This document shows, piece by piece, positions 790-62,200 of a stretch of DNA of 64,000 nucleotides (positions are counted from its first letter, which is position 1; each line of letters starts with the position of its first letter). Below the pieces are notes generated by a model. The model was not told the origin of the DNA, did not search any database, and saw only the letters and a program-made list of their open reading frames with translations. The translations under genes and the position numbers were made by a program. This stretch comes from Haliotis asinina (taxonomy: Eukaryota > Mollusca > Gastropoda > Lepetellida > Haliotidae), in NCBI RefSeq assembly GCF_037392515.1, contig NC_090288.1:9341969-9405968 (forward strand), written 5' to 3'.

Positions 790-3700
790 GCAAAAACCTT
801 CAATATTAATATGATAAACCTCAACCTCCTAACGTGAACAGATTCATAGAGAATGACTCTACAACAATATGGAATGGAAATATCACAAATGACATTAAAA
901 AGAATAATAAATTGTCTTCATACCACATTTAGGCAACTGTGTAATCGACTAATTTCCTTTGCCAAGGCGTCAAGATTTTTCGAGGCATCTTGTGTATGCT
1001 TGTGAAGCTGCCTTGGCCCGGTGCCATCCTGGGAGAGAAATACAGCACAGAAATAAGCACCTGTCTATCACACAGTTAACAAGCTACAGAAAGCAAAACA
1101 TCCCACAGCCCTTACCCTGACAAAAAACACAGGTAGATCACACACTGAAGGTAGGATAATGTCTTGCCTGTCGCGGATCTAAGTGGACAGACTGAAAACA
1201 TTATAGCAAAACATCTCACAGCTGTGACAGAAAACACATGTTCTCATGTGAGTGAATTTTACTCCCACAAGACCTAAGTAGAAAGGTATTGCTGAAGCGG
1301 CTGAGGTTGTAATACTCACAAAATGGCATAAGAAAGATGTTTAATTTGGGAGAGGGCTTGAAACCACCTGTTTCAGAAGTTAGATCAAGTGTCCATGTTT
1401 CACCGTGATCTTCAGAGATCCACAACTCTGTTTTTAGTGACTTTGTTATGAGTATGGCAAAAAGCCTTCAAACCGTAACACATACAAAAACTATCTTGAA
1501 TTTCCAAATCCTTAATTAAAAGTCACATTTAACCAAACTTGACCTTCAGAAACACTGCAAAAATTCCCAAAGTTGTCTTGATGACAGTTGTGACACAAAC
1601 AAAAGTTGTCTTGCTGACAACTATGACACAAACATAAATTGTCTTGATGACCATTGTGACACAAAGGTTGTCTTCCTGACAACTATGACACAAAAATAAA
1701 TTGTCTTGATGACCATTGTGACACGAAGGAAGGTTGTCTTGCAGACAGATGTGACACAAACAAAAGTGGCCTTGATGACTGTTGAGACACAAACAAAAGT
1801 TGTCTTGAATGGGCAACATTTAACCTATAGCAAACATGTTCAAAGCTGTGACACCACCACACAGATCCAGCATAATCCTGTATGATAAAAAACTTAATAC
1901 CTTCCTTGTGTCTTGTTACAAGTTACCACTGAGATAGCCAGATTAGACATGGGGAAGCAGCATAGGATCTACCTTGGTATGTTTGGAGAAGCAACATACC
2001 TCGCCTGTCCGGGCATCATAGGATAGCAGCATAGAACCTACACTGGCATATTTGGAGAAGCAATATAGGATCTACTTTAGCATCTCTGGATAAACAATAT
2101 AGGATCTACCTTGGCATTTCTGGAGAAGCAATATAGGACCTACCTTGGCACCTTTAGAGAAGCAACATAGGATCTACCTTGGCATCTTTGGAGAGGCAAT
2201 ATAGGACCTACCTTGGCAACTTTAGAGAAGCAACATAGGATCTACCTTGGCATCTTTGGAGAAGCAATAGAGGGTCTAACTTGGCATCTTTGGAGAAGCA
2301 ATACAGGATCTACCTCAGCACCATAGCATAGAACCTACACTGGCATATTTGGAGAAGCAACATAGGATCTACCTTAGCATCTCTTGAGAAGCAACATAGG
2401 ATCTACTTTAGCATCTCTGGAGAGGCAATATGGGATCTACTTTAGCATCTCTGGAGAAGCAATAAAGGATCTACTTTGGCATCTTTGGAGAAGCAATATA
2501 GGATCTACTTTGGCATCTTTGGGGAAGCAATAAAGGATCTACCTTTGCATCTTTGGAGAAGCAATAGAGGATCTACCTTGGCATCTTTGGAGAGGCAATA
2601 TAGGATCTACCTTGGCACCTTTGGAGAAGCAACACAGGATCTACCTTGGCATCTTTGGAGAAGCAATAGAGGGTCTACCTTGGCATCTTTGGAGAAGCAA
2701 CATAGGATCTACCTTAGCATCTCTGGAGAGGCAATATAGGATCTGCTTTAGCATCTCTGGAGAAGCAATATAGGATCTACTTTAGCATCTCTTGAGAAGC
2801 AATATAGGATCTACTTTAGCATCTCTGGAGAGGCAACATAGGATCTACTTTGGCATCTCTGGAGAGGTAACATAGGATCTACATTAGCATCTCTGGAGAG
2901 GCAACATAGGATCTACTTTAGCATCTCTTGAGAAGCAATATAGGATCTACCTTTGCATCTTTGGAGAAGCAATAGAGGATCTACCTTGGCATGTTTGAAG
3001 AGGCAACACTGGATCTACCTTGGCATCTTTGGAGAAGCAATAGAGGGTCTTCCTTGGCATCTTTGCAGAGGCAATATAGGATCTACCTTAGCATCTTTGG
3101 AGACGTAATAGAGGATCTACCTTGGCATCTTTGGAGAAGAAATAGAGGATCTACCTTGGCATCTTTGGAGAAGCAACATAGGATCTACCTTGGCATCTTT
3201 CGAGAAGCAATAGATGATCTACATTGGCATCTTTGGAGAAGCAATATAGGATCTACCTTTGCATATCTGGAGAAACAACATAGGATCTACTTTGGCATCT
3301 CTGGAGAAGCAATATAAGAGCTATCATAGCATCTATGGAGAAGCAACATAGGATCTACCTTGGCATCTTTGGAGAAGCAATAGAGGGTCTAACTTGGCAT
3401 CTCTGGAGAAGCAACATAGGATCTACCTTGGCATCTCTGGAGAAGCAATATAGGAGCTATCATAGCATCTCTGGAGAAGCAAGATAGGATCTATGTGTCA
3501 TCTTTGGAGAAGCAATAGATGATATACCTTGGCATCTTTGGAGAAGCAATATAGGATCTACCTTTGCATCTTTGGAGAAGCAACATAGGATCTACCTTGG
3601 CATCTTTGGAGAAGCAATATAGGAGCTACCATAGCATCTATGGAGAAGCAACATAGGATCTACAATACCATCTTTGGTAAACCAATACAGGATCTACCTT

Positions 3701-6700
3701 GGCATCATAGGGGTAACAACATGGGACTAATTTGGCATTATTGCGGAAGCGAAATGGAGCCTACCTTGGCATATTTGGAGAGACAATACTGGGCCAGCAC
3801 TTATGAGATAGTGTCAATGAGGTAGTATAATTAGGACAACAGTCAATGACTTACCCGGGCATCATTGAGTATCTGTGGGTGGGCTCTGATCTGTTCTCGC
3901 ACATATACCACTGTGCTGCCGATGTAACGCAGGTGCTTGGAGATGTTGGCCACCATAGCCATGGCATCTGGGCAACTGAAACACACACATGGATGTTAAT
4001 ATGTCTGTTCCACAGTAAACACTGTTCCAGCCATATCATGTTGATTGTAAATAGTGGAGTTTGGATCACACCAACCAGTGACTGATATCATGATCAACAA
4101 TCAACCCAAATGAGTGTGTGAGTTTAGTTTTACGCCACACTCAGCAATAATCCAGCTTTATGGCGGCAACCCAAATGAAGTAAGATGATAAAAACAGACA
4201 GGAGTCTGACTACTTAATCCTGTTTATAGTCCTCTTAATACAAGCATGGACTATCACAGTCAACATGAATCTGGACAAAGAGCTTTTCATCATGTAATGT
4301 AACCATATCTGTGTGGCCTCTGAAGACCTCTGGGATGGAAATGGTCTTCAGCACCCCATGCCCCTCATAAGAGTTAACTAAGAGCATCAGGCAGTCAGGC
4401 TTGCTTACTTGGTTATTAAGACACTAACCATCCCAAAACACACTCGCATGACAACCTATATTATTACTCACTTGTGGAAAATTCTGCAGTATAATATTGT
4501 ATGACATTATTACATCAGTGAAATACAGCTATACATATGACATCATAATGTTTATGACTACAGTAGTTGCAATGAGCATGTGTTGGATGTGTACTGAACT
4601 CAAGATAAACCAGTGGTTGATATAGTGAGCATCCTTCCATGCTATTTCGGTACTGTCACAGCTACAATAGGTAGAGATGTTGAGATACTTGTTATGTCAC
4701 ATGTACCACAGTTTTTGTGTTACTTTGCCCGAAATCATCACAAGCATGGAGTAATGCAAGCCTATAAGTGGTATAGTGAGAAAAAACAGTGACTGGTTCT
4801 GTCAGTAGAATCTGTCCTGTTTCCAAGGTAAACATTCAGAAGATCATATTTATACTCGTTCCAAAGAACACAAACTGAGGAAATTCCACACAAAATGAAT
4901 ACACATAGTCATCACATAAAGTGAGGAGAGCTAAGGGAGAGAACTCTGCAGTTAAGATGTGGTCAATGTACCCACTGTCGTCTGTTATAGACATATGTGG
5001 TTGACTGATGTTTCCCTAAAACCATACAAATGAAGGTTACTTTTTACACTTAAAGAGTGAGTGAGTGAGTGAGTGAGTGAGTGAGTGAGTGAGTGAGTGA
5101 GTGAGTGAGTGAGTTTGGATTGAGCTGTATGTCTGTGTCAGCTTTTTATATGAAGAATTGAGTGAGTTTAGGTTTATGCCACACACAGTAATATTCCAGC
5201 TATATGGCAGCGGTCTGTAAATATTTCAGTCTCAGCCAGAAATACAAGTGATCACCAGCATGAGCATCGATCTGTACAATTGAGAAATGATGACATGTGT
5301 CAACAAAGTCAGCTAGCCTGACCACCTGATCACATTAGTCTTACGAGAAGCATGGGTTACTGAAGGTCAATATATTGAGCTGGACCTTCATGGGTTGATG
5401 TAGGAAGAAAGCCTAAGGGATGCATGGTTGGGATGTTTAGGGACAGTTTATAATCTATGGCTTGGGGGTGAAGCATGTACAATGTGAATGACATCCCCCT
5501 AAAATTTATGTGCAAAGTAAGTGACCCTGCCACGAATGCCATGTACAAAATCAATTACCCCACAGCCTTTCCATAATTTTTCCACATACTGTTGTAATGT
5601 TTCCATGTCAAAAAGTGCTGACCCCACTCTAGTAAATGTGTATGAAATTGATGGCAACTGCCTCCCCAGCAACAAAATGGTCACCTCCTCCGTTCATCAT
5701 CATTTCGCCATAGCCACAAATTATGTGAGTTCCCTTACCATCTCTGACGTACTGACAGCATACAAACATTATCCAAAACCCATGATTATAGTTTCCTGGC
5801 AACACTAAGGGAAGTAACTCTGCACAACTGTGCCCCCCCATTGCAAGAGTTTAACGTACTGTGTTTACTAAGCAGTGATTACACTTTGGCACACAAATGG
5901 AATAAGCAACAGTGATTCAGCTACATCTTAGCATGCTCTGTTGGTAAAACTGTGGACACATCGAGGGCATATCAGGGATTCAAACTCTGAACAGGGGATA
6001 CTAGCATGGCAAATGCAGTAAACTGTGGGGGTAACGTTCGTCCATGTTAACGTTATATGTACTGCTAGTCATAAATAATATAAGTGACAGCAGAAATTGT
6101 TGTAAAATGTTAGTAGTAACCATGAGTGGATCAAATATATCAACCACTTTTAATAAATATAAAGTGGTGTTTTGACAAAGTTTCAACTGCAGTAGAGAGT
6201 GGAATCTAGAGTTATCTGCCCCTGACTGTTTACATGCACAAGGGATGATTAATCATTTAAGAATTTCTGGCAACAATGGGAAGCTTCACCTCATTAACAG
6301 CAAAAAGGGTTGTTTTCAGGCCTAGCTCACCTAACAAGTTGCAGCACAAGTAACTATTTGTAAACACATAACCCAGTCAGTCTTTTTACTCAATTTGTGA
6401 ATCCAAATACAGAGTCGGGTCTCTTTCAGTCCATTAGTAAGCATGTATCCAAACAGGGCTACAGCAACTGAGATACAATGTGTGCCCCACATATGAAATA
6501 CACAAAGCTGGTGAGTGGGATTATGGAACCAACCCCAAGGGTGTGCATGTCTGTGTTGTGCTCACCCAATGTGTTTGTTATACTGTACAGAGATGAGGCT
6601 AGAGGTGTCCCACTCCTTCTTGTGGACCACCTCGATCGCATCCAGCAGCTTCTTGCGTATTCCGATCTGCATGATCCCCATCTGTGGAGGGAGGTAGACA

Positions 6701-18700: not shown

Positions 18701-21578
18701 AATTAATCCTTTAAAAGTTTAAGGATCATTACAGATCCCTTTTTCAGGCGAAGTGGAAACATTATGTGGAAAGAATAAAGAAGCTTAAATTTATAAAATA
18801 TCTTGGTCATCAACAACAAGTTCTAAATGCTGCTGAACGACATTACATGAGTCTGGATCTGAAAATCCAGTAAGTGATAATATATACAACAATGCATGCT
18901 GTTAAACAAGTCATCTGATCTACTACAACCAGTAACAGAGCTTGTGTTCGAATCCCAGATGGGACTCAACTTTAAAAAAAAAGTACTAGAAAGTGTAATG
19001 GCATTGTGTGATCATACTACAACTAGGTTGATAGGAACCCATTGTAACCTGTACTCATGTGTACTTGAGAGTACAAATAATCACACATGGAAATACTTTA
19101 TTAGAGCCTGACATTATTTTCATGGCTGTTCAGCATTCACTAACCCTGTTGCAGACACTGTTCTACTACATCAGTGTGGCCCCTCATGGCTGCTGCCTGG
19201 AAGTCATCCTTCGATCGCATGTCCTTCTTCGGCATATGTGAAGAAAGGGGGACACCAAACCCATTTTGAAGGTGCCTCTGGATGTGAAAAATTGGGTCTT
19301 TGTTAATGTATTGAAATTTACTGGCATGATAAATGGATTTACTTGAACCTAAACATTTATCAGTTTGAAGGAGCATTCTTCTCAAATCTTTACAGATTTA
19401 AGACTTTAGTGACTTAAGAATTCAGCCCAGAACATTTCATGATACATTCAATAATCATCATACTGATTATCAGGGCTCCAATGATTCGGTTTGATTCATC
19501 AAAAATTAAATCTGACATCACAGTTTTAATTTTTGAAAACAAATATCACTATTTTGATATTTTAATACCTATTTATATTATTTCCACACAGCCAAAACGA
19601 ACTTATAAAGCTGTCTGGGGCACTTTTGAGCACAAGGTGTTATTATTTCATAGCCATATCATAATAGACACAAAGCACTGCCATCAAACACATTCCATGA
19701 ATCGGATTGTTATGACTGTTGCACTGTCAAATTTTATAGCACCCAAGTTACTTTGGGATTTCCTGGGGTAAATTATCAACGAATAGATCGTCATCGACTT
19801 TAGACTTTACCACGAATAGAGATAGCGATCACAACTATGGTAGAACTGACATTTCATGTAACTGTCGGAAGGCTCCATAAGAAACCTCGTAAAAAGCGTT
19901 CATGTTGTTATCCCCATAATTATGATAATATCAGGACCCGTGAAGGCCCCTGGAAGAAAAGGCCTTCAGCAACCCATGCTTGCCATACAAGGGGACTGTG
20001 CTTGTCGTAAGAGGCGACTAACGGGATCGGGTGGTCAGGCTTGCTGCACAGGAACCCGATACCGCACTGTAGGTTAAACATTGACCATAGATATACACTC
20101 ATGTCATATATATTAATAGAGTAAAGGAGCAGCAGCTGCCATATTGGATTGTCGCGCAGACATTGACTTGTTCCGATTTCAAGCTGAAATGTAAGCTAAG
20201 AATTCGGTGACATTCAAAACTATGCACACATACCTCTCAATTGTACTTGTCCCCATACATCCTGCCTGATTTCCACGACATAACACCCATTTTACTAACT
20301 TTAATATGTCCTCAAATTCGAAAATCAAATTTAGGGAGTAGTGCACTTTACTGGGCGCGCTTTTTCCGATTTTTTTTGGTTGTGCTGGCGGGGCTCGAAC
20401 GCTCTCAGCAGGGGTCGTGGGATTCCAACTGGCGCTAATTAGTCTAATTAGCGGACACGCTACCTCGGGACCACCGGTGCGATCACAGTTAGCTAGTGCT
20501 CGTTTAATGGGTCATTACCCCACTAGCTCTGCGCATGCGCCGTGAATGAAAACAAACTATTATAGTTTGTTTTCATTTACTGCGCATGCGCAGAGCTAGG
20601 CCCCGCCTACCCATTCATCAAAGCGAGAAGCCACACCTAGGCATTGTTTTCAAGATGTTGTGCAGCCAATCCAGCGAAGCTATGATATATGATGACGTTT
20701 ATCGTTTGACTTTCGATTCATGGATGGATATATGGATGTAATCGCATCTAAGGTAAGCCAACCCTAACCTTTACTCACTAACCCTGAGGATCTAGAAGGG
20801 GGGGTCCCTAACCCTAAGGATCTAGAAGGGGGGTCCCTAACCCTAAGGATCTAGAAGGGGGGTCCCTAAGCCTAAGGATCTAGAAGGGGGGGTCCCTAAC
20901 CCTAAGCATCTAGAAGGGGGGTCCCTAACCCTAAGGATCTAGAAGGGGGTCCCTAACCCTAAGTATACATCAGCGCGGTAAAGTGAGACAGTTCAGTAGC
21001 TCTACATCGTGCTATCACTATAGCGCGCTCATTAGCGAGCGCTCAGCAGTCCCGGGTCGCGCGCCCGGTAAACTGCACTCTAGCCCAAATTTACTTACGT
21101 TCAGCGGACCAATGAGATTGCTCGAAAGGTTGCGAGTGCGGGATAACGTTCACCCCAGAGGTGTTTTGGTTTGATTTTCGAATTTGCGATATTGGGTTCC
21201 CGTGGCTTGCTGACTTGGTTGCCACATGTCATCGGTTCAAAATTACGCAGATCGATGCTCATGTTGTTGATCACTGGGTTGTTTGGTCCAGACTCGATTA
21301 TTTACAGACCGCCGACATATAGCTGGAATATTGCTGAGTACGGCATAAAACAAAACTCACTCACTCACTGATCCTATCAGTTGATGATAAGATAACGACA
21401 TTACGTATATCAGAATATTGTCATCAACTTCACTTACTCGATTCGTATTACTTGTGGGTCCCTTTTCGACTGGTCCAAGGAGCCTTGGCTTTTCATCAAA
21501 CTGCACGTCTTCATTTCCTAGCATGAAATCATCTTCATCGAAGTCATCTTCTTCTCCTGCAGCACTGAACAACGCCAT
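636..21578 (-). CDS. ASZ1: ASZ1/GASZ: ankyrin-repeat, SAM and membrane-anchor piRNA-pathway protein
   Basis: In vertebrates and flies GASZ sits on the mitochondrial outer membrane of germ cells and scaffolds piRNA biogenesis. Coding exons read on the minus strand: 21578-21438 (MALFSAAGEEDDFDEDDF, acidic N-terminus), 19277-19145, 17907-17785 (ankyrin, CGWTALMYAANSANPKLVRL), 16490-16376 (ankyrin, ACSSNREVNGSILECVQIL), 9588-9477 (ankyrin, PLMCAAREGHVTIMEYLIG), 8479-8354 (ankyrin, ALSWAASKGHMKAVKLLLD), 8025-7864 (linker), 7165 or 7178 to 7043 and 6681-6566 (SAM domain, YGELEVFLYGLEVGHLIPLF), 3975-3855 (helical, AMAMVANISKHLRYIG), 1028-924, and a probable membrane exon ending at 636. The order and residues match human GASZ throughout. 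Splice phases agree from the start codon to 1028-924 except at the exon 7/8 junction, where either GACAA|gtcagt with acag|CCC or TCA|gtaaat with gatgag|CGG restores frame. The start is the first ATG of the conserved acidic exon. Length would be about 500 residues against 475 in human. The introns hold a DIRS element, MITEs and a large minisatellite. Confidence 0.88.
1575..1810. repeat. Degenerate short tandem repeat in an ASZ1 intron
   Basis: Roughly seven irregular units of about 30-36 bp built on TTGTCTTGATGACCATTGTG and GACACAAA. The units differ in length and base content, so the array is old or was never homogeneous. It lies between the exon at 3975-3855 and the exon at 1028-924. Confidence 0.7.
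1955..3800. repeat. 34-bp minisatellite (about 54 units) next to an ASZ1 exon
   Basis: Units of 34 bp built on GGATCTACCTTGGCATCT plus TTGGAGAAGCAATA run for about 1.8 kb; spacing of the GGATCT motif is 34 bp (for example 2467 to 2501). The array sits directly downstream, in gene direction, of the ASZ1 exon ending at 3855. The unit resembles that exon's end and donor: the plus-strand TTACCCGGGCATCATTGAG at 3851-3869 aligns with the unit's CTACCTTGGCATCTTTGGAG, and a variant near 2010-2025 keeps CCGGGCATCAT exactly. On the gene strand each unit reads TGCCAAG|gtagat, a fair 5' splice site. Open frames across it are by-products of the repeat. Confidence 0.93.
4108..4172 (-). mobile_element. SINE fragment (abalone-type 3' end)
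   Basis: This has the family's tail region in reverse, GTTTTACGCCACACTCAGCA followed by ATCCAGCTTTATGGCGGC. The 5' part is missing. Confidence 0.7.
5053..5114. repeat. GAGT tetranucleotide microsatellite
   Basis: About fifteen GAGT/GTGA units. Such runs are the reverse of the (ACTC)n tail of the local SINE family, whose fragment follows at 5150-5340. Confidence 0.95.
5150..5340 (-). mobile_element. SINE copy, reverse orientation
   Basis: It contains GAGTTTAGGTTTATGCCACA, TTCCAGCTATATGGCAGC, a diverged central part and CTGACCACCTGATC, in the order expected for the reverse of the copy at 60387-60629. Confidence 0.75.
7436..7760 (-). mobile_element. tRNA-derived SINE copy, reverse orientation, interrupted
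   Basis: Read in reverse it starts with a tRNA-like head (AACCTTGTGGTCAAAGCG as A box region, GGTTCGATTCCCC as B box, 7690-7760) and ends with TTGCTAAAAACGATGTAAAA and a GTGAGT tail near 7440. About 130 bp of unrelated sequence (around 7550-7680) splits the body. Confidence 0.65.
8110..8250 (+). mobile_element. SINE fragment, plus orientation
   Basis: This is the 3' half of the abalone-type SINE: TGTTGATCACTGGATTGTCT, then AATATTGCTGAGTGTGATGT and an ACTCAC tail. It lies in an ASZ1 intron. Confidence 0.75.
8605..8935. repeat. 162-bp tandem duplication in an ASZ1 intron
   Basis: Two adjacent copies with ACTCACATACTCGGACTGCA at about 8650 and 8812. They share ACCCAATTACCCGGAAGGCT and differ by scattered substitutions. 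Confidence 0.9.
10103..14883 (-). mobile_element. DIRS-type tyrosine-recombinase retrotransposon
   Basis: Parts, read on the minus strand: right terminal inverted repeat (14672-14866), a gag-like region with a Cys/His cluster (about 13610-14119), reverse transcriptase and RNase H region (about 12080-13660), a tyrosine-recombinase region in an overlapping frame (within the 842-codon frame 10956-13484), then an internal complementary region (10381-10478) and the left inverted repeat (10144-10340). This is the standard DIRS layout. The inverted repeats are about 195 bp and almost identical, so the insertion looks young. The element looks whole or close to it, with at most a few breaks. It lies in ASZ1 intron 4 in gene orientation and interrupts a MITE. 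Confidence 0.93.
10381..10478. repeat. Internal complementary region of the DIRS element
   Basis: The first half is complementary to the left end of the element and the second half to the right end, joined head to head. DIRS elements are thought to use this region to form a circular intermediate. Its presence fixes the element ends at 10103 and 14883. Confidence 0.88.
15091..16013. mobile_element. TTAA-flanked MITE-like element in ASZ1 intron 4
   Basis: TTAA followed by AGGCCACATGCAA at the left, and TTGCATGTGACCT followed by TTAA at the right: 13-bp inverted ends with one mismatch and a TTAA duplication. TTAA targets are used by Kolobok and piggyBac transposons. The 900-bp interior has no transposase frame, so it would be non-autonomous. 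Confidence 0.72.
16770..17345. repeat. Three diverged units of a ~150-bp repeat
   Basis: The phrases AATCCAGTGAACCTGTACTT (16877), ATTCCAGTGAATGGTTCTTG (17043) and AATCGAGTGAATGGTTCTTG (17209) recur about 166 bp apart, each followed by a GCTGACA- or CCGACA-type stretch and a diverged AAAATT/TCAAGGTCACC region. No coding function is seen. Confidence 0.7.
18175..18335. repeat. Foldback element, 58-bp arms
   Basis: The left arm GATAAACATCATGTG...GTATTTGAAGCACGGGAAT pairs with the right arm ATTCCCGTGCTTCAAATACT...CATGATGTTTATC around a loop of about 45 bp. The following sequence to 18560 is rich in TGACGTCA/TGACGTAA-like motifs. Probably a non-autonomous DNA element; no clear target duplication was found. 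Confidence 0.8.
18935..19045 (+). mobile_element. 5'-truncated tRNA-derived SINE
   Basis: It begins at the B-box region (TTCGAATCCCAGATGGGACT) and continues with a body shared with the longer copy at 61705-61920, including AATGGCATTGTGT. Confidence 0.7.
19928..20062 (+). mobile_element. SINE 5' part
   Basis: Contains CAACCCATGCTTGCCATACA, AAGAGGCGACTAACGGGATC and GGGTGGTCAGGCTTGCTG, the 5' half of the abalone-type SINE. The 3' half is absent. Confidence 0.75.
20523..20599. promoter_or_regulatory. 77-bp hairpin with NRF-1-type palindromes (composite MITE)
   Basis: Arms of about 37 bp pair almost perfectly around an AT-rich tip. Each arm carries TGCGCATGCGC, matching the NRF-1 consensus YGCGCAYGCGCR exactly at 20581-20592 and at 11 of 12 bases at 20530-20541. 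It lies about 1.2 kb from the NDUFA12 start codon. Regulatory use is inferred, not shown. Confidence 0.6.
20757..20962. repeat. CCCTAA-containing 26-28 bp tandem array in the composite MITE
   Basis: About seven units of CCCTAACCCTAAGGATCTAG plus a G-run. The CCCTAA core equals the animal telomere repeat, but the unit is longer and lies inside a transposon, so this is not an interstitial telomere. The counterpart is at about 41890-42066. Confidence 0.9.
21205..21372 (+). mobile_element. SINE copy in ASZ1 intron 1
   Basis: Good match to the 60387 copy from GGCTTGCTGACTTGGTTGCC through GACTCGATTATTTACAGACC and GGAATATTGCTGAGTACGGC to an (ACTC)n tail. It ends only about 65 bp from the ASZ1 exon 1 donor at 21437. 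Confidence 0.85.
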
Positions 21579-29500: not shown

Positions 29501-32500
29501 GAAATCGCTGATGTCCAACATGTTTGTTTACAAACGAAAGGGTCAGCAGATACATTGTATTCATATGCGCTCAATCATTCATGCTAATTAGTGGTCCTTA
29601 TACTACCATTTAAACAAGGTTTGATGAGCTCTGATGAGTTGAGTATCACACGATGTCACGACAGAATCCCTGATGATGTGACATAGAAAATGGTTCAAGA
29701 CAAAATGGCAAACTCATAGAGTGAAGGGATGTGAAAAAGCAGTGAGCCTAACTATATTCTTGATGCCCAAAGTTTGTAAAGTTTTAATTTTATTCTAAAG
29801 GAATCACTAGCAAAGCCAGATCCAAAGTTTAACCTATGTGGACAATGTGGGTCACGAAATATGAGTCGTCACTACACATTGAGGAACACTATTTGTAAAG
29901 TAATTGCAGAAAGTGAAAACGATGTCATTTGGTACCATTTCATGGCAAAGAGACTGGTCCTCAGTCTGTAAGATACATAATGGTCAAACTGATGCTAATC
30001 ACATGACAAAGAATACAGTTTTTACTGCCTCAAAACCTGTCCGCACATTACTTGCCTCCCATTCTTTTTCAGTAATCAGCAGGGAGCTCTTGTACAAAAC
30101 AACTAAGGCTACCTTATGTCTATGTTAAGGTGTAGGAGTTATGGTCACTTTAGTGCTAACATCGCTTTGTACAATGACACTCTAGTAATCAGGATGGTAC
30201 ACTTTATATAATTTTCATAATCAAGATATGGGTCATTTATGTAATCTTAAGAGGTGATGTCAAAACGTAGTGAGCCTCACCAGGACAATTATATAAATGC
30301 AGATTTTTTTATGTTTTATTTTTATACATATTATCTGTGAACCTCAAGCAAATTGGTTTGGCTATGTTCCAGTCTCACAATCCCCATGTTATTCGACTTT
30401 ATCTTGGAACACCCCAAATAGTAAAGTGCATTAAAAAACCAATTTGAAACTATAATTGCTTGTTAATGTGACTCCCCTCTTCATGTTTACTGAAAGAGCT
30501 TGTTTTGGAGACACTACACATCCCCCTCCAGATGACGTAGTCATAAGGACATACATGTAACCGATTCTAATGTTTTCTCTATTCATAGGGTTCAGTCTAA
30601 ATACTGAATGTCATCAAAGTGTCAACTCCCAATATATTGAAAACAGTGCCAATTTGAAAATCTGGACACAGTGTTTGTGAAGATTAAAATGGGTGTGTCC
30701 TTAGAAAAGAGCCCCTGTCCACATTTAATCAAGTAATCCTTTACATTTTATAGATAAATTATAAATGAAACACATGCTTATTAAAACTGCACATTGAGTG
30801 AGTGATTGAGTTTAGTTTATGCTGCTTTTAGCAATATTCCAGCCGTATCACACAATGTTGCAACAGAATCCCTGATGATTTGAACCCAGAAAGGGCTTCA
30901 TACATTATGCCTATGACACGACTCAAGTGGGTCAAGTGTTCACAGGGCAGAGGGGTAGCATAGTGATGGAAGTTGTCTTGTTGAAGACACTGGTTTGATG
31001 CAAGCCCATTTCTGGTGTTGTGTGCTTTGATATTGCTGAAATATTGCTAAAGTAGGCACAAAACCACTCACTCAATCACCCAAGACAACCAAAGACTGTT
31101 CTCTGTATGCCCCGCCATGATATTTTTTCAATACTGTAAAAAGCAGCCCCAAACTGTACACACAGGGTATAAACCCGTCATAGTAATTGCCTGTTTGTCC
31201 ACAATGTTGTTACTAGGTGAGTAGACTTACAGTCGTGACAGGGCACATGCGATGGCCACGTTGAGCACTGGGAATACATAGATGATGAAACGCAGCTCCT
31301 TGTGAGGCAGGAAGGAATACAGCAGTACAAAGGTCAAGGCTGGCCAGAGTAGAGACCACACCTGCCGTGTGAAGTATAGTCCGACGGGGATGAGAACGAT
31401 ACTGAAGGAAAGTGCACGTGGCAGGGCGGAGTAGAAGTACCACAGGAACGGGGATGTCAGATCCAGTCAAGGAATTGGAACACTGATTTTTACACTGACG
31501 ACTTTCATCTCATGGATAACTTGACCACCTATCAAAGATCTGCCACCACCACCACCACCTGAAGAACATTGGTTCTATTTGTCACCTCCTCACCAGAAGC
31601 ACCACAGCTACACTGATGAGATCCTTAGTGCTGTCGCGGTTAGACTACTGCAATAGCCTTTTGATTGGTATTACCAGTGACCAACTTCACAGCCTGCAGA
31701 AGCTGCAGAAAACCGCTGCCAGGATCATCACACGCATGACACTACCAAGTCACATCCATCCTGCATTGAAGTCCCTAGACTGGCAGAGAGTGAGGGAAAG
31801 AATAGAGTTTACGATCTAAACTCTAACCTACAAATCCCTAAATGGAACATCTCCACTCTATCTCCAAGCCCTTGTCGTCAGCCTATGTCCTGAACAGGAA
31901 TCTCTGATTTGCCAATCAATCACTTCTTGTTGTTCCTCAAAATAAACCCAAAACATTCGGAAATAGATCATTCAAACATTCAGCTGCTTTCCTATGGAAC
32001 TCCCTACAGACACTAAATCTGCTCCAACTCTCACAAGTTTTAAATCTTACCAGAAGACAGTACTTTTTTCTTCACTACTGACTTATAGTTATTATTTATA
32101 ATTAACTTTAAGAAATTTGTAGCAATTAAATTGGCAAAAGAGGGAACTGTGTATGTTGCTTCTTTGAAAGAATGAATGAGGTTAGTTTTACATGGCACTC
32201 AGCAATATTCCTGATATATTGTGGCAGTCTGTGAATAATTGAATCTGGACCAGATCATCCAGTGATCAACAGCATGGACAATTGGGATACCATTTCTTTT
32301 GAACAATACACAGTCATGATTACATGCCAGTTTGTTGTAAGAAAAATGATCCAATTGATGAAACTCTGACGCTTTAATCATTCTGAAGAAAGCCATGTGT
32401 CTGAAGTCAATCTACTACATTTATAAGTCAAGGAATATTTGAGATTGAAACCCATACCATGTGGATCTGGACACATCTAAGGTGCATAACTCTGCAAAAC

Positions 32501-35500
32501 AAGAAGCAGCAGCCCAACTATTAAAAGATCTCTTTATCTGAGCAGACTCCAGTTTTCAGTTGTTGTGTATGACATCTATTGTGCTTAACATTCGTTCAGT
32601 TGGTACAATCAAAACTGATATGATGACGGTCTGTGAATATATAAGCATTTAAGTCTCCCCACGTGTGTCTCCATGAGTGAGATTGTGTAAGTACACAATG
32701 ACAAGGATACCCCCCAGTCTGAGCTCTTGTTGAGGACAGTGTTGTACCACAACACCTCACCTTCTGGCCACAACCATCGCTGCCACATCACGGAGTCGAC
32801 ACACACTGTGAGTGCTGAAACACAAAACACAGGACATTCCCACACTGTACGGCCTGAATAATGACATGCCTAGTAACAAGGCCGTTCTGATTGACCTTGT
32901 TACAATGGGCTGCTGTAACTCACCTAGTAACAAGGCTGTTCTGACTCTTCTAGTAACACTGGACTGCTGTAATTCACCTAGTAACAAGGCTGTTCTAACT
33001 CACCTAGTAACACTAGACTGCTGTGACTCACCTAGTAACATGGCTGTTCTAGCTCACCTAGTAACATTAGACTGCTATGACTTACCTTGTAACATGGCTG
33101 TTCTAACTCTCCTTGTAACACTAGATTGCTGTGACACCTAGTAACATGGCTGTTCTAATCCACCTAGTAACACCAGACTGCTATGACTCACCTAGTAACA
33201 TGGCTGTTCTAATCCACCTTGTAACACTAGACTGCCATGACACACCTAGTAACATGGCTATTCTAACTCTCCTTGTAACACTAGACTGCTGTGACTCACC
33301 AAGTAACATGGCTGTTCTACCTCACCTTGTAACACTGGGCTGTTATGAATCACCTTGTTACACTGGGCTGATATGACTCACCTAGTAACACTGTTATGAA
33401 TCACCTTTTAACACTGGGCTGTTGTGACACCTAAAACCATGAGATTGCTACGACTCCCATAGTAACACTACGCCTGCTGTGACTCACCTAGTAACACTGG
33501 GCCTGCTGTGACTCACCTAGTAACATGGCTGTTCTAGCTCACCTAGTAACACTAGACCGCTATGACTTACCTAGTAACATGGTTGTTCTAACTCTCCTTG
33601 TAACACTAGATTGCTGTGACACCTAGTAACATGGCTATTCTAATCCACCTAGTAACACCAGACTGCTATGACTCACCTAGTAACATGGCTGTTCTAGCTC
33701 ACCTAATAACATTAGACCGCTATGACTTACCTAGTAACATGGCTGTTCTAACTCTCCTTGTAACACTAGATTGCTGTGACACCTAGTAACATGGCTGTTC
33801 TAATCCACCTAGTAACACCAGACTGCTATGACTCACCTAGTAACATGGCTGTTCTAATCCACCTAGTAACACTAGACTGCCATGACACACCTAGTAACAT
33901 GGCCATTCTAACTCTCCTTGTAACACTAGACTAATGTGACTCACCAAGTAACATGGCTGTTCTACCTCACCTTGTAACACTGGGCTGCTATGACTCACCT
34001 GCAAACATGGCTGCTATGACTCACCTTGTTACACTGGGCTGATATGATTCACCTAGTAACACTGTACTGTTATGAATCACCTTGTTACACTGGGCTGATA
34101 TGACTCACCTAGTAACACTGTTATGAATCACCTTTTAACACTGGGCTGTTGTGACACCTAAAACCATGAGATTGCTATGACTCCCATAGTAACACTAGGC
34201 CTGCTGTGACTCACCTGGTAACACTGGGTCTGCTGTGACTCACCTAGTAACACTGGGCCTGCGATGATGACGGTGGTGAAGAATCTGCGGAGAGGCATGC
34301 GTCCCATGACCAGGTCTGCCAGCAGGATGAGGCCGAGGAACATGGCGAGCTCTGCTCGGAAGATGATAATGGCTGCTCCAGAGTACCACAGGAACTGACT
34401 GTGCTGCTGTCTCAACCAGTTGGACAGTGCCTGCAGGACTGATACATCACCATGGCTACAGACCACTTATCCAGGTGATAGTAGACACACATCATCAAAT
34501 TTTAGCCAAGAAATTCAAGGACTTAAATCACTGTCTCATTTATTTTCTGAATTTGGTGATTCATAATAAAACATGCAGATGTAGATAGTTTTTGTGTTAC
34601 CTAGGGCGAGAGCAAATACATTAGGCAGTGGTCTGGACATGTAGAACATGAAGTGGAACTGTGTGATGGTGGTAACCATCAGCCAGAACTTCACACCGGG
34701 ACCGAACCGGGTCTGAACAGCCCGGCAGAATGTCAGGAAGCTTACTGACACAATAAACCCAAGACAACCACGAACTGGAACATAAAACTCTTGAAATAAT
34801 ACAGAGTACATACTAATACAAACATACAATTTTGACATGAAAGAACCAAGAAATGTAAAGTTGATAGATTAAAACTTATAACACACATTGTTCAAACTGT
34901 AATTCTTTTCTGAACTTTTACTTTGACCATTAATAATAATGAATGCATTATGACAACACTGCTTAACGCTCACCAAGATATTGCCGAAAAAGCTTGTTTC
35001 CATTGAGGAGCTGAGAAACATGAGCCCAAGGGGAGGCAACTGCAGCCACAAACATGGGCCCCAGAAAACTGCGAGGTACCACACCAGGGAACTCAAGATG
35101 GTCATACTACAAACAGAGGTGATTCATAATGACAACACGTGTACAGCATAACAATCATTTACCTCAATCAATAGACCGATTCAGTCCGGGTCGATAAGCT
35201 CCGCCCACTTCGTTTCTTGACGTTAGAGGGGACAACCTCTGACTAATAACAATGGCGTCACCTCTGTCAAAACGTAAGAACGGCGTCGATGACTTCTGCT
35301 TGTGGTATTTTGGTATCCGTCTTTTCTAAATGATATTTAAAGCGGAAAGTTACACGTACTTTATTTTTAATATATCATAGCTAACAGGTTGTAATTAGCG
35401 AGTGAAATTGAGTTACATGCCTGATGAAAAATCGTCTCGGCCAGTGGCTGCGTGTAGGAAGCGTACTTTCCTTTGAAACGATTAATCTATCTGGCAATTC

Positions 35501-41281: not shown

Positions 41282-44200
41282 ATGGCGTCTGCCTTGTCAG
41301 AAGAAGAGTTTCATCGTATGCAGGTACCGTGTTTACTTTCTGCTTCGGATGTGTGCAGTAACAGTAACAGACAAAACTGTCAGGAAAATATTACATTACT
41401 TGGAGACGTGTTTGCGTAATACGGAAACTCAATCCCAACCTTTTTCCGTTCTAAATTTCTGAAAATCTAGTTTATTTTTGATAATTGCATGATCAGTGGT
41501 GACCTGATGGTATAGACTGTGGGGACCCTTTCATTACGTGCATAATTGCATTTCGCGAATCTATATCACTTTACATGTCCGCACAAAATCACGATCAAAG
41601 CTGGGCAATTTGCCGGGACACTCCGGATGACGGTAAAGATTTGTTCACAGAAAATCTAAACTTGAGTAGGCGTGGCATAGGCTGTCAAATTCTTTTTTGA
41701 TGGAGAATTTTGACATGAAGACATTATCATTATATTATCACTTTTTGTATTGCACATTCTTCCAAATCATTATCAGCTTTCGTAAAAGGGCTAGAGTGCA
41801 GTTTACCGGGCGCGCGACCCGGGACTGCTGAGCACTCGCTAATGAGCGCGCTATAGTGATCTACTGAACTGTCTCACTTTACCGCGCTGATGTATCCTTA
41901 GGGTTAGGGACCCCCGCTTCTAGATCCTTAGGGTTAGGGACCCCCCCTCTAGATCCTTAGGGTTAGGGACACCCCCCTTCTAGATCCTTAGGGTTAGGGA
42001 TCCCCCTTCTAGATCCTTAGGGTTAGGGACCCCCCTTCTAGATCCTTAGGGTTAGTGAGTAAAGGTTAGGGTTGGCAAACCTTAGATGCGATTATATCCA
42101 TATATCCATCCACGAATCGAAAGTCAAACGATAAACGTCATCGTGTATCATAGCTTCGCTGGATTGGCTGCACAACATCTTGAAAACAATGCCTAGGTGT
42201 GGCTTCTCGCTTTGACGAATGGGTAGGCGGGGCCTAGCTCTGCGCATGCGCAGTAAATGAAAACAAACCATAATAGTTTGTTTTCATTCACTGCGCATGC
42301 GCAGAGCTAGTGGGGTAATGACCCGTTAAACGAGCACGAACTAACTGTGATCGCACCGGTGGTCCCGAGGTAGCGTGTCCGCTAATTAGTCTAATTAGAA
42401 TCCCACGACCCCTGCTGAGAGCGTTCGAGCCCCGCCAGCACAGCGAAAAAAATCGGAAAAAGCGCGCCCGGTAAAGTGCACTACTCCCCGTAAAAGCTTT
42501 GGTGATTTTAGTGATAGTTTCCATGAAATTTAGACTCGTGTAACATTTGATTAAAATCTTATCGAGGATACTGTTTGTACTGTGCTGAAGTACTTGTTCC
42601 TTCATTGTGAGGGTATACTTAAATTTTACCATTGCTTGTGCTGTAATTGCAAATGATCCACTTGTCATAGCTCTACATGAGGGTCAAGATGCCCACTGAC
42701 GGCAGTTTCAGTGAAATCCTGTGAAGATTCAGGTTAGGATTTGGCTTCAACAATCCATGCTTGTTAGGTCTGATGGTCAGGTTCATGACTTGCCTGATGC
42801 ATGACATGGTATACTGCTTGTGTAGACAAATGCTTATGATATCAATAACTGGATTGTCTGGTGAATATTTACAGACCATTTTACATAGCTGGAATATTGC
42901 TGAGTGCAGTGTTAAATAGCAAACAAACAAGTATGAAATGATGCTTGTAATGTTCAACATAAATCTTTTTCAGCTTCAGCTGATAGAGCTGAGGACAACA
43001 AACTATGAATTTGAGGGCAAACTGAAGAAAATAGAGAGAGGTATCTACATAATTAGCATAATCTTTATAGAATTATCTAGAGGAGATCTGGATTTATTGT
43101 GTTAACCCTTGTTAATTCTGACATGTTCTGTAAGATGATGATTCAGTGTTTCTGAGAAATGTTTTTTCTAAAATTCTGTTCAAAGTGCCAAGGGCAAGCA
43201 GCAACAACATTGGTTTGTCATAAATTGGGAGTGTTGTCTTTTCTAATATTGGGAAATAAATTTTTTTATTACTTGCCCGTTGAAGATACTGCAGTGTAAT
43301 ATTTTCACTTCAATATTACACTAGTGTAATACCGCTTAATGTATGACGTCAAAATGGTTCAAAGTTGTGACGTCACAATGCTAATATTGATGTCACGATT
43401 TTACTAGACCTTGCTTGACTTGAAAGCTGAGTCCTCACACTGTAGGCCATTTCACCGCAGTTTCTGTCAATTTATGTTGGCGAGTAATAAACAGAATACT
43501 AAACTCGCTTCTGTGAAATACCATTTTCATTAAACTCGTTAAAGATTTAGTATCAAACTCGCTTTCGCTCGTCTGATACCAAATCATTAACTCGTTTAAT
43601 AAAAATGGTAATACACGGAAGGTCGTTTAGTATCCTCTATATATTAAATAAGGTTGTAATGGGAAAGTTGATCTCGTTCTTTGTGTACAACAAGACACCT
43701 TTTCAAGAAGTTAACATTAGTTGCAAAGGGCAGTATGATTGTTAATTATATCCAAATATTTTCTGACTTTCTTCTGACTGGGGACTCAATAGTGATTGTC
43801 TAATTACTTGTAAAGTTTAAACAAGATTCATAATCATTGCTATTCAAAAGGCAAATGGGTAAAATTGTCAATGATTTGTGAAATGTGCACGTCTTGTGTT
43901 ACAGAGCTCATAAATTCAGCTGAGAAAAATGAAGCACTGGAAAAAGAACTGATTAAAGCCAACAAGGTAATGTTTAAATGGCATGCATGCAAATATATGT
44001 TCATTTTAAACCATCTGATAGTCAATGACTGATAATACCGGTATGTCATCTTTCACAAATCTTATTTGTCTTTGGCAGGCAATCAGCAAGAGCAAGAAAG
44101 CTAAGGTAAGATCTCATTTTAATGCTTCTTGTTCACAAAGATCAAATGTCTGTCTCCAGGAAACAGGTTAAATATCCAAGTTCTAAATGGTCTTCGTTAA

Positions 44201-59200: not shown

Positions 59201-62200
59201 TTTTGTGCCGGTGTTGACAACTTGACGGATCGGACAGATGCTGGTTTTGACAGCTTTCACTGTATGTCTAAAACCACACACAGATGTCACAGGACACTTT
59301 CTTGACAAGTTTGTCAAGTGTGTTACCCCCAAGCTACAGAACGAAAGTTGAAAGTTTGCAAGTCAGCAGTGCCGTTTACTAGCTCCCATGGGGGTTGGGG
59401 TTAAAGGATGTATGTAAAATAAAGACAACTAGAGAATCCAGGAAGTGGCATGGCCCACCACCGATTCTGTCACACATAATAATCATGAGTCAAGATAAGG
59501 AAAAATATGTAATTTTCTAAAAAAAAATGATATTTCATACTTATCCTGACTCATGAGGTCAACCCTTCCATCCTCCCCTCTCATGACATTGTAGATTTCA
59601 CTGTAAATTTGTGTGTTGAGCTGGTTGATTCAGAGAGAGTGACACGCATGTCTGGTCATGTGACTGATTTGCACGCTAATACATGGGCTAAAGGGAGGGT
59701 GAATGTTGATTTTTACATCCTCTTCATTGAAAGGAACTTCAAGGGATTCACATGGTTCCACTATGTTCGGTTAGAAGAAGGAGACAAGCATAATAAGCAT
59801 GAGTCAGGATAAGTATAAAATATAAATTTTAATCAGGAAATTGGATATTTACATTAGATATTAGAATTAGCTTTCAACTGAGAGACCAGAGCTTCTGACT
59901 TAAGATGTGTGGTGGTTTATAATGACATAACTGTTGTGCAGGAGAGTCAGAAGGCCAGCCAGGAGACCCTGGACCAGCTGCAGGCTGCTCAGAAGGAGAG
60001 AGACACCGAGATACAGGCCCTACAGGAGGTCAGCAAGGTCAGTACAAGATCACATTGACAGCAAGTGTTTTGATAGCATTTGTTTGGCGTGATTTGCTTG
60101 ATGGATAAATATTGCTGCATGTCTTTTGTACTTTTGTCTTGAACAGAAACCATTCTGATATGAATGAATATTACTTAGAGGAGTGTCAGAAATGTCCATT
60201 TTGCTTGGGATATACTTCATTATTTAGATTTGATCATAAAGACAAATGACTGCAACATTTAGCAGCATGTGATGCATGCAGCAAGAAGCAAAGTAGAAAG
60301 TAGTATTCAAGCCCTGTCGAACCAGTTTCAGATGCACATACTGATGAATAACTTTCAATACAGCATTTTTTTCCCTAAGATAAAAGACCTGTGAAGATCC
60401 CGGGGTAGAATAGGACTTCTGCACCCCATGCTTGTTGTAAGAGGTGACTAGTAGGATTGTGTGGTCAGGCTTGCTGACTTGGTTGACACATGCCATCGGT
60501 TCCCAACTGCGCTGATCGATGCTCATGTTGTTGATCACTGGACTGTCTGGTCGAGACTTGATTATTTACAGACCACAGCCATATAGCTGGAATATTGCTG
60601 AGTGCAGCGTAAAACAAAACTCACTCACTCCTAAGATAAAAAGGGAAAATAAAATTGACACTACTATGATTATGAGGAGATGCTGTTGGAAGAGAGCACA
60701 TGTCAGATTGAGGCATGTTTGGACTCTTACACATCTTCGAAGTGACTAAACATGGACAGGTTGTTAGTGTGTGCTGAGCATGGATAGGACACCTTGATGT
60801 TATCTACGATTTGATGGAGATACTACTGGACTTGAACTGGACTCACTCATCTCTTTACTTCCTCAGATTGCAGAGAAGAGGAAGTCCCTGCTGGATGAGC
60901 TGGCCATCAAGTATCAAAAGGACTGTGATTCTCACCATGCCTACATCAAACAGGTGGAGGAGAAGCATGGGGATGAGGTGCAGGCACTGCAGAAACAGAT
61001 AGAAGAACTAGGGGTAAACACCTTCACATGTCGCACTTAGCTCACCTGAGCGTTTGATATGTAGCTCACCTGAACATGTAATATAGACTAGGGATATCTG
61101 GCTGCCTGTTTATCAATATGCTCTCCATTACTTGTATAATGAACTGGAGTAAGTAAAGTCATGTGTAACTCTTAGCTCAACCTCATGAGTGACATGTACC
61201 TCACCTTCACAAGTGACATGTAACTCACCTTCACAAGTGACATGTAACTCACCTTCACAAGTGACATGTGCCTCCACTTTACTAGTGACATGTAAGTCAC
61301 CCACTCAAGGTATATGTAGCTCACCTTCACAAGTGACATGTATCTCCACTTTACTAGTGACATGTAACTCACCTTCACAAGTGACATGTAACTCACCTAC
61401 ACAAGTGGCATGTGCCTCACTTTCACAATTGACATGTAAGTCACCCACTCAAGGTATATGTAGCTCACCTTCACAAGTGACATGTGACTGGAACTGACTT
61501 ATATAGCTCACCTTCAGATGTAAACAGTAGCTTGCCTTATGTGAAATGAACGTGGGTTAAATACCTCAGGGTGTAGCTTGTAGCTCTCTTTTGCTTGTAA
61601 CATTTAGCTCACCATCACTTGTTACAAAAACTAAGTCATGTAATGTTGCTCACTTCAATAGCTAGAATTGACATGTAGAATTATTGAACTCAAGCTTCCA
61701 CTGAAGTCGCAGTGGCTGAGTGGGTTAGCCGGCTGACTTTGTGTGCTGTTGATTAGGCGCCTGACTCTGAGAGGGTGGGTTCGAATCCCAGATGGGACTG
61801 ATCTTTACTAAGAAAGTGTAACCCCAAATATAACATATGCTAAATTTTAACACTTTCTAAATGGCATTGTGTAATCGAAACTCAACCTTTGTATTAACTG
61901 AGTGGAGAATGGAATTATGTCCTGTGTATGTTAAAGCATTCAGCTGAAGAAATAATATGGACTGATTCATTTAAACCATCTTTAATCTTTTCCAGCTAAG
62001 GTGTGATCAGTTACAGAAATATGAACATCAATGTGATGAACTCCACACAAGAGTTAAGTCCATTGAAGATGCAAAAGGCTGGTTGGAGAGACGATTGAAG
62101 GAAACAGAGGTGAGATGCAATTACTGTGAAGTCTTGTTAATCTGACCCCTGTTTATCTGACAGTTGGCTTTATCTGGCGCTTTTGTTGGGAACAAATTGA

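What the first reader, a model, noticed from the sequence alone, without database searches (positions are those of the whole stretch)
32866..34262. Minisatellite grown from the ALG12 exon 4/intron boundary, giving dozens of decoy splice donors
The array unit contains the last ~19 bp of ALG12 exon 4 (CTAGTAACACTGGGCCTGC, plus strand) joined to the first ~10 bp of the intron, so the real donor is just the outermost unit. On the gene strand the following 1.4 kb repeats CTAG|gtgagt or CAAG|gtaagt every ~27 bp, many as good as the true site. A spliceosome must choose the first of about 40-50 near-equal donors. Either exon definition enforces the choice, or alternative transcripts with array-derived tails exist.
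Basis: partly seen in the sequence, partly recalled or inferred. Interest (0 to 1): 0.78.

Follow-up and report, generated by a model that had tools for sequence, protein, structure and literature searches.

The report
Splice-donor minisatellite inside gastropod ALG12
A stretch of DNA at the end of one exon of a sugar-transferring enzyme gene has been copied head-to-tail about fifty times, filling the next intron with look-alike splice signals; such arrays were described before in lancelets and in one human gene, and here they turn up in several other genes of the same animal.

Summary
The observation largely holds. On ALG12's strand an array (32869-34254) of 52 units, 23-29 nt apart, starts inside exon 4 and makes up 96% of the next intron; units join exon tail to intron start. 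All 32 decoys break ALG12's frame or add a stop. The genome search found one copy, so the array probably grew in place. It fits a known kind: amphioxus "mirages" and the human IFI6 minisatellite. New here: of 27 other donor-bearing arrays read, 6 by homology (NDUFS2, MTO1, HIRA, TLE, RIM-BP, ACAD10/11-like) and 5 more by open frame start at a coding exon end. The census pattern misses ALG12's own array, so such arrays may be commoner. Whether donors attract arrays could not be tested fairly. Decoy donors are partly decayed and no selected function is seen. Most likely: a tolerated local tandem expansion, the exon-proximal donor being chosen by exon definition. No RNA data or related species were available; decoy use is untested.

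The parts
34244..34438 (-). ALG12 exon 4 (195 nt), ends ...GCAGGCCCAGTGTTACTAG
34238..34246 (-). true 5' splice site TAG|GTGAGT (10.9 bits), outermost unit of the array
32869..34254 (-). minisatellite of 52 units spaced 23-29 nt, 96% of intron 4; units join exon tail, donor and intron start
   Evidence: TRF; unit list; extent
34209..34217 (-). nearest decoy donor CAG|GTGAGT, 29 nt downstream, stronger than the true site (12.5 bits); its use shifts the frame, stop in exon 5
33474..33506 (-). unit identical over 33 of 33 nt to the exon 4/intron junction, 756 nt inside the intron; near the start of a repeated block of the array
32815..32868 (-). 54-nt unrepeated intron tail with the 3' splice site (tttgtgtttcag)
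32711..32814 (-). ALG12 exon 5
31208..31221 (-). single copy of the array's 14-mer CTCACCTAGTAACA in reverse orientation, from nt 10 of the intron after ALG12 exon 6

Best explanation
A junction-derived minisatellite, of the kind called a mirage in amphioxus. A short tandem duplication spanning the exon 4/intron 4 boundary grew by slippage or unequal exchange to 52 units (inferred from unit structure and a large internal block duplication). Selection keeps only the first copy, which codes for protein and supplies the true donor; the rest drift (inferred). Splicing tolerates the decoys because exon 4 is recognised across the exon, where the donor nearest its acceptor wins (inferred). Leakage to decoys would yield frameshifted or prematurely stopped mRNA, expected to be lost by nonsense-mediated decay (inferred). 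No positive function of the array is needed.
For: The array DNA has one match in the genome search (that search passes over very common words). Units carry up to 19 nt of exon tail; one unit matches the junction over 33 of 33 nt. The exon end aligns with 9s6t without a gap at the exon 4/5 join, so the exon looks like the source. Donor columns are not kept better than the rest: +2 T 83%, +4 A 75%, +5 G 67%, against 88-100% for the exon-derived GTTAC. 32 of 32 decoys lead to a stop, 31 in the array and 1 by frameshift in exon 5. Other arrays of the genome also start at exon ends. Published: amphioxus mirages are said not to disturb regular splicing (passages); within large introns, splice sites closest across the exon are preferred (PMC9225289, abstract only).
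Against: No RNA data: use of the true donor is inferred from frame and homology. The nearest decoy is stronger than the true site and only 29 nt away. AG|G and +3 are kept at 90-98%, so decay is partial, and units were picked by likeness to the junction (at most 7 of 16 mismatches), which inflates all columns. In human IFI6, two downstream repeat units are used as donors, giving three mRNAs (PMC4526556 passage). The upstream intron is short (162 nt, from the exon ends), which weakens a pure exon-definition argument.
Confidence: 0.78

Rival explanations
1. Leaky choice: a measurable share of ALG12 pre-mRNA is spliced at decoys, and array length tunes ALG12 output through nonsense-mediated decay.
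For: 18 decoys as good as or better than the true donor, the nearest one stronger; all 32 decoys lead to a stop. IFI6 uses downstream units (passage).
Against: Donor positions +2, +4, +5 and +6 are kept less well than the exon-derived part. Amphioxus mirages are reported to splice normally (passages).
Confidence: 0.13
2. A dispersed satellite inserted in the intron and happens to look like the exon end.
For: 16 of 27 other arrays with AGGTRAGT showed no clear exon at their start.
Against: One match in the genome search; 33 of 33 nt identity of one unit with the junction and 17 of 19 exon nt in unit 2.
Confidence: 0.02
3. Donor-proximal nucleation: something about 5' splice sites (for example an RNA-DNA hybrid at a U1-bound nascent transcript) makes tandem growth start there more often than elsewhere.
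For: 6 by homology, and 11 with those judged by open frame, of 27 AGGTRAGT arrays start at exon ends, while 0 of 20 single AGGTAAGT sites looked to me like ordinary gene donors.
Against: The 20 sites all come from the first 0.55 Mb of one contig and several lie in frames that look like mobile elements, so the comparison is unfair. Random nucleation with tolerance may give the same share; rough recalled intron numbers allow 35-70% of such sites to be true donors. Match counts against backward patterns show no clear excess.
Confidence: 0.07

Closest known systems
Mirages of amphioxus (Adh3, globins, TnC; similar repeats in PGBD5)
   Same: Minisatellite-like tandem duplication spanning an exon-intron boundary; many but not all units carry AG/GT signals; unit 10-72 bp in Adh3 (PMC3087553 and PMC3902484, passages only).
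   Different: Gastropod instead of lancelet; 52 units against 6 and 3 in the two BflGb6 haplotypes; makes up nearly the whole intron; splicing and instability not tested here.
Human IFI6 (6-16) splice-donor minisatellite (Turri, Cuin and Porter 1995)
   Same: Repeat units at an exon end that act as splice donors.
   Different: IFI6 uses two downstream units, giving three mRNAs (passage in PMC4526556). The original paper was not held and was seen only as a title in reference lists. In ALG12 all 32 decoys lead to a stop.
Polymorphic 27-bp minisatellite in intron 3 of abalone TSSK1-like
   Same: Intronic gastropod minisatellite with a similar unit length, copy number differing among individuals (PMC6905558, passages only).
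   Different: Not described as spanning a splice junction in the passages seen.

Membership tests
Mirage (amphioxus type) | tandem minisatellite-like repeat spanning an exon-intron boundary | tested here: met
Mirage (amphioxus type) | many, not all, units carry AG/GT splice signals | tested here: met
   41 of 52 units keep AG|GT
Mirage (amphioxus type) | unit length in the reported range (Adh3 10-72 bp) | tested here: met
   spacing 23-29 nt
Mirage (amphioxus type) | regular splicing not disturbed | not testable with these tools
   no RNA data; frame open over exons 2-6, protein homologous over 429 residues
Mirage (amphioxus type) | copy-number instability between haplotypes or somatic | not testable with these tools
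   one assembly, one match; an internal block copy is suggested by the repeated run of unit lengths
IFI6-type multiple-donor minisatellite | repeat units hold near-consensus donors, the outermost being the exon's donor | tested here: met
   (definition partly recalled)
IFI6-type multiple-donor minisatellite | downstream units used as donors in mRNA | not testable with these tools
   no RNA data

The most novel reading that the evidence does not exclude
Junction-seeded donor arrays are a genome-wide, recurrent load on splicing in this mollusc lineage. By growing, an array changes how its own intron is recognised: it lengthens a short intron (here about 54 nt of unrepeated tail plus a few units) to 1.4 kb, moving donor choice from pairing across the intron, which would favour the innermost decoys, to pairing across the exon, which favours the true donor. 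Array length would then be a self-protecting, allele-dependent switch on ALG12 output.
Probability: 0.1. Interest if true: 0.78.

Novelty: new member of a known kind. Interest (0 to 1): 0.47.

Why it matters
How the spliceosome finds the right donor among many equal ones is usually studied with built minigenes. This genome supplies natural cases in conserved genes (ALG12, NDUFS2, MTO1, HIRA, TLE) with different unit lengths and decoy strengths. In ALG12 every decoy counted is frame-breaking or adds a stop, so fidelity could be read directly from RNA. It also extends mirages from lancelets and one human gene to a mollusc, suggesting a wider route by which exon ends seed minisatellites and, possibly, new introns.

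Tried and rejected
Dispersed-satellite origin: disfavoured, one match in the genome search. Selection to keep decoys: not seen clearly. Two other arrays in the window (1950-3788 and 61188-61489) were tested as junction-derived. Similarity to the nearest exon junction was weak (36 and 18 of 1000 shuffles as good, and 100 and 64 of 2000 random 50-mers of the window), so it is not claimed. Donor-array matches against patterns read backwards: 1468 vs 949 for GTGAGT and 573 vs 592 for GTAAGT; grouped by hand over contig 1 up to 64.2 Mb, 14 arrays vs 10. Large arrays dominate the match counts and the backward word is common in GAGT repeats, so no enrichment is claimed. Open frames before the first donor: 12 of 27 arrays have one of 40 codons or more, against 20% of 75 donor-like control sites in the window (the control includes sites of the ALG12 array). 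A fair null (share of single AGGTRAGT sites that are true donors) could not be measured: 20 sites at a contig tip gave 0 ordinary gene donors (judged by eye), and a spread sample could not be cut out. Paper searches on tandem repeats and splicing listed no mollusc mirage; led to PMC9225289. C. elegans and earthworm minisatellite papers (passages) concern other things. The donor matrix is recalled, not derived from this species. NCBIfam gave no match.

Full report
What is there. Conceptual exons match Pfam Glyco_transf_22 (E 4.6e-45) and the solved chain 9s6t over 429 residues (E 7.6e-119; titled only "Mannosyltransferase"), while the chain titled ALG9 matches at only 6.7e-06; the name ALG12 rests on this and on recall. 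A further coding exon (KVEESFN...) lies upstream near 38.9 kb, so the exon in question is probably exon 4: 34438-34244, 195 nt, with an open frame through exons 2-6. Its donor is TAG|GTGAGT at 34243. The next exon starts at 32814 after a 1429-nt intron, of which 1375 nt (96%) is the array. A 54-nt unrepeated tail with the 3' splice site remains.

The array. TRF reports 32869-34254. Splitting at the junction motif (at most 7 of 16 mismatches) gives 52 units, spaced 23-29 nt. At the junction 43 of 52 keep GT, 48 of 52 keep AG before it, 41 of 52 keep AG|GT. The unit at 33487 is identical to the exon junction over 33 of 33 nt, and the run of unit lengths 29-29-28-26-23-28-28 recurs there, so a large block of the array was itself probably copied. 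The exon-derived GTTAC columns are kept at 88-100%, AG|G at 96-98%, +3 at 90%, and the remaining donor columns +2, +4, +5, +6 at 83, 75, 67 and 81%. Decoys are partly decayed, with no sign of special upkeep; the selection of units by likeness inflates all these figures.

Donors. On a recalled donor matrix, 33 sites (true one included) reach 5 bits, 19 equal or beat the true site, 8 strictly. U1 pairing energy puts 16 other sites at or below the true one's value. Over 300 dinucleotide shuffles of the array, the mean is 0.6 sites (maximum 4) at the true site's score, 6.1 (maximum 17) at 7 bits against 32 seen, and 16.1 (maximum 28) at 5 bits against 33 seen. The antisense strand gives 0 at all three cut-offs. 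The nearest decoy (34214) is stronger than the true site. Of 32 decoys, 31 put a stop inside the retained array and one (34214) shifts the frame to a stop in exon 5. So none of these decoys can give a normal ALG12 protein.

Where it came from. The whole array has one match in the 1.14-Gb genome (the tool passes over very common words and scores only its best candidates). Its 14-mer occurs 16 times: 13 in the array, once in reverse orientation beside the donor of ALG12 exon 6, twice on another contig; the pattern read backwards occurs 5 times. The protein aligns to 9s6t without a gap at the exon 4/5 join. So the exon end is the likely source and the array grew in place.

Not alone. Searches for three AGGTGAGT or three AGGTAAGT with 10-40 nt between them list the first 100 matches each; by position I grouped these into 27 arrays (14 and 13), all on contigs C1-C3. 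The AGGTGAGT pattern has no match in the window, so this census misses ALG12's own array and others as degenerate. I read the DNA upstream of the first donor in all 27. In six, the exon running up to the first donor has homology below E 0.01: NDUFS2 (Pfam 1.7e-08; PDB 4e-15, aligned to its last residue), ACAD10/11-like (APH 0.0016, below Pfam's cut-off; gene name recalled), RIM-BP (SH3_9 0.0071; PDB 9.9e-11), HIRA (7.2e-12), MTO1/MnmG (1.1e-18), TLE/Groucho (WD40 1e-06; TLE1 chain 1gxr over all 48 residues). Five more (L051, L056, L074, L076, L091) have, by eye, an open frame up to the donor, an acceptor-like AG or a start codon, and a unit that repeats the exon tail, but no firm homology. For L051, L089 (HIRA) and L091 the frame taken is not the longest open one. 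L074 matches DUF4487 only at 0.035, no better than a chance-like hit in another array (Zn_ribbon_9, 0.041). The other 16 show no clear exon there (L064, L077 and L086 are uncertain). 12 of 27 have an open frame of 40 codons or more before the first donor, against 20% of 75 donor-like control sites in the window.

Exon nt repeated in the unit, best of up to five following donors: ALG12 17/19, NDUFS2 20/21, ACAD 36/39, RIM-BP 7/7, HIRA 23/24, MTO1 17/23, L091 11/12, L056 34/35, L074 30/31, TLE 21/22, L051 3/3, L076 11/11. RIM-BP and L051 are thus weak on this point. In 12 of 12 (ALG12 plus 11), at least one downstream donor in the DNA held scores as high as the first one. Of 153 downstream donors of 6 bits or more within 1.4 kb, 147 add a stop, 4 shift the frame and 2 (both L051) stay in frame and open. 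Some of these lie beyond the arrays, the held DNA is short for several loci, and distant donors meet a stop by chance anyway.

Is there a bias for donors? I cannot tell. Under random seeding plus tolerance, the share of donor arrays at true exon ends should equal the share of AGGTRAGT sites that are true donors. AGGTAAGT occurs 40,409 times, the word read backwards 61,295 times. The only sample I could read, 20 sites in the first 0.55 Mb of contig 1, had none that looked like an ordinary gene donor (by eye) and is unrepresentative. Match counts of the array patterns against backward patterns show no clear excess.

How it most likely works. Shown: structure, one match in the genome search, decoy strength, reading-frame damage, partial decay of donor columns. 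Inferred: growth by slippage or unequal exchange; purifying selection on the first copy only; donor choice by exon definition; decay of leaked transcripts. In support, amphioxus mirages are reported not to disturb splicing (passages), and alternative sites within large introns are reported to pair across the exon at the shortest distance, within short introns across the intron (PMC9225289 abstract). Against, IFI6 uses downstream units (passage), and the upstream intron of ALG12 exon 4 is only 162 nt.

Comparison. The features of a mirage that can be tested here are met; splicing and instability could not be tested. Searches that could have shown a mollusc case listed none in the held library, which lacks most subscription papers. 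An abalone intronic 27-bp minisatellite varying among individuals is on record (PMC6905558 passages), without mention of a splice junction in what I saw.

Noticed in passing
32710 down to 31458 (minus strand): The ALG12 intron after exon 5 has a U12-type donor (GTATCCTT) and branch site (TTCCTTGAC; consensus recalled), but the in-frame 3' end reads TG|ACA, not AG: a GT-TG minor-spliceosome intron or a base error.
   Followed up: partly
L090 about 250-560: The MTO1-like exon with a donor array downstream also has an acceptor-side array upstream (repeated ...GTTACCATGTTTCAG, by eye), so both splice sites of one exon sit in minisatellites.
   Followed up: no
1950-3788: A 54-copy, 34-bp array begins 66 nt after the donor (3854) of a likely coding exon on the minus strand; units read GATGCCAAG|GTAGAT, faintly like the exon end GATGCCCGG|GTAAGT (36 of 1000 shuffles as good).
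   Followed up: partly
61014-61489: A 24-bp array lies downstream of the donor GTAAACACCTTCACA of a likely plus-strand exon; units read GTAACTCACCTTCACA (18 of 1000 shuffles as good).
   Followed up: partly
31208-31221: One reverse copy of the array 14-mer lies at nt 10 of the intron after ALG12 exon 6; the same word read backwards occurs 5 times in the whole genome.
   Followed up: partly
L076 1490-1580; L061 (minus strand) about 1500-1620; L093 450-900: Some AGGTAAGT arrays read like pyrimidine-AG|GTAAGT in each unit, resembling arrays of recursive (zero-length exon) splice sites.
   Followed up: no
20778-20963 and 41894-42055: Two arrays with the same kind of 29-bp unit (CTAACCCTAAGGATCTAGAAGGGGGGTCC) in opposite orientation, 21 kb apart.
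   Followed up: no
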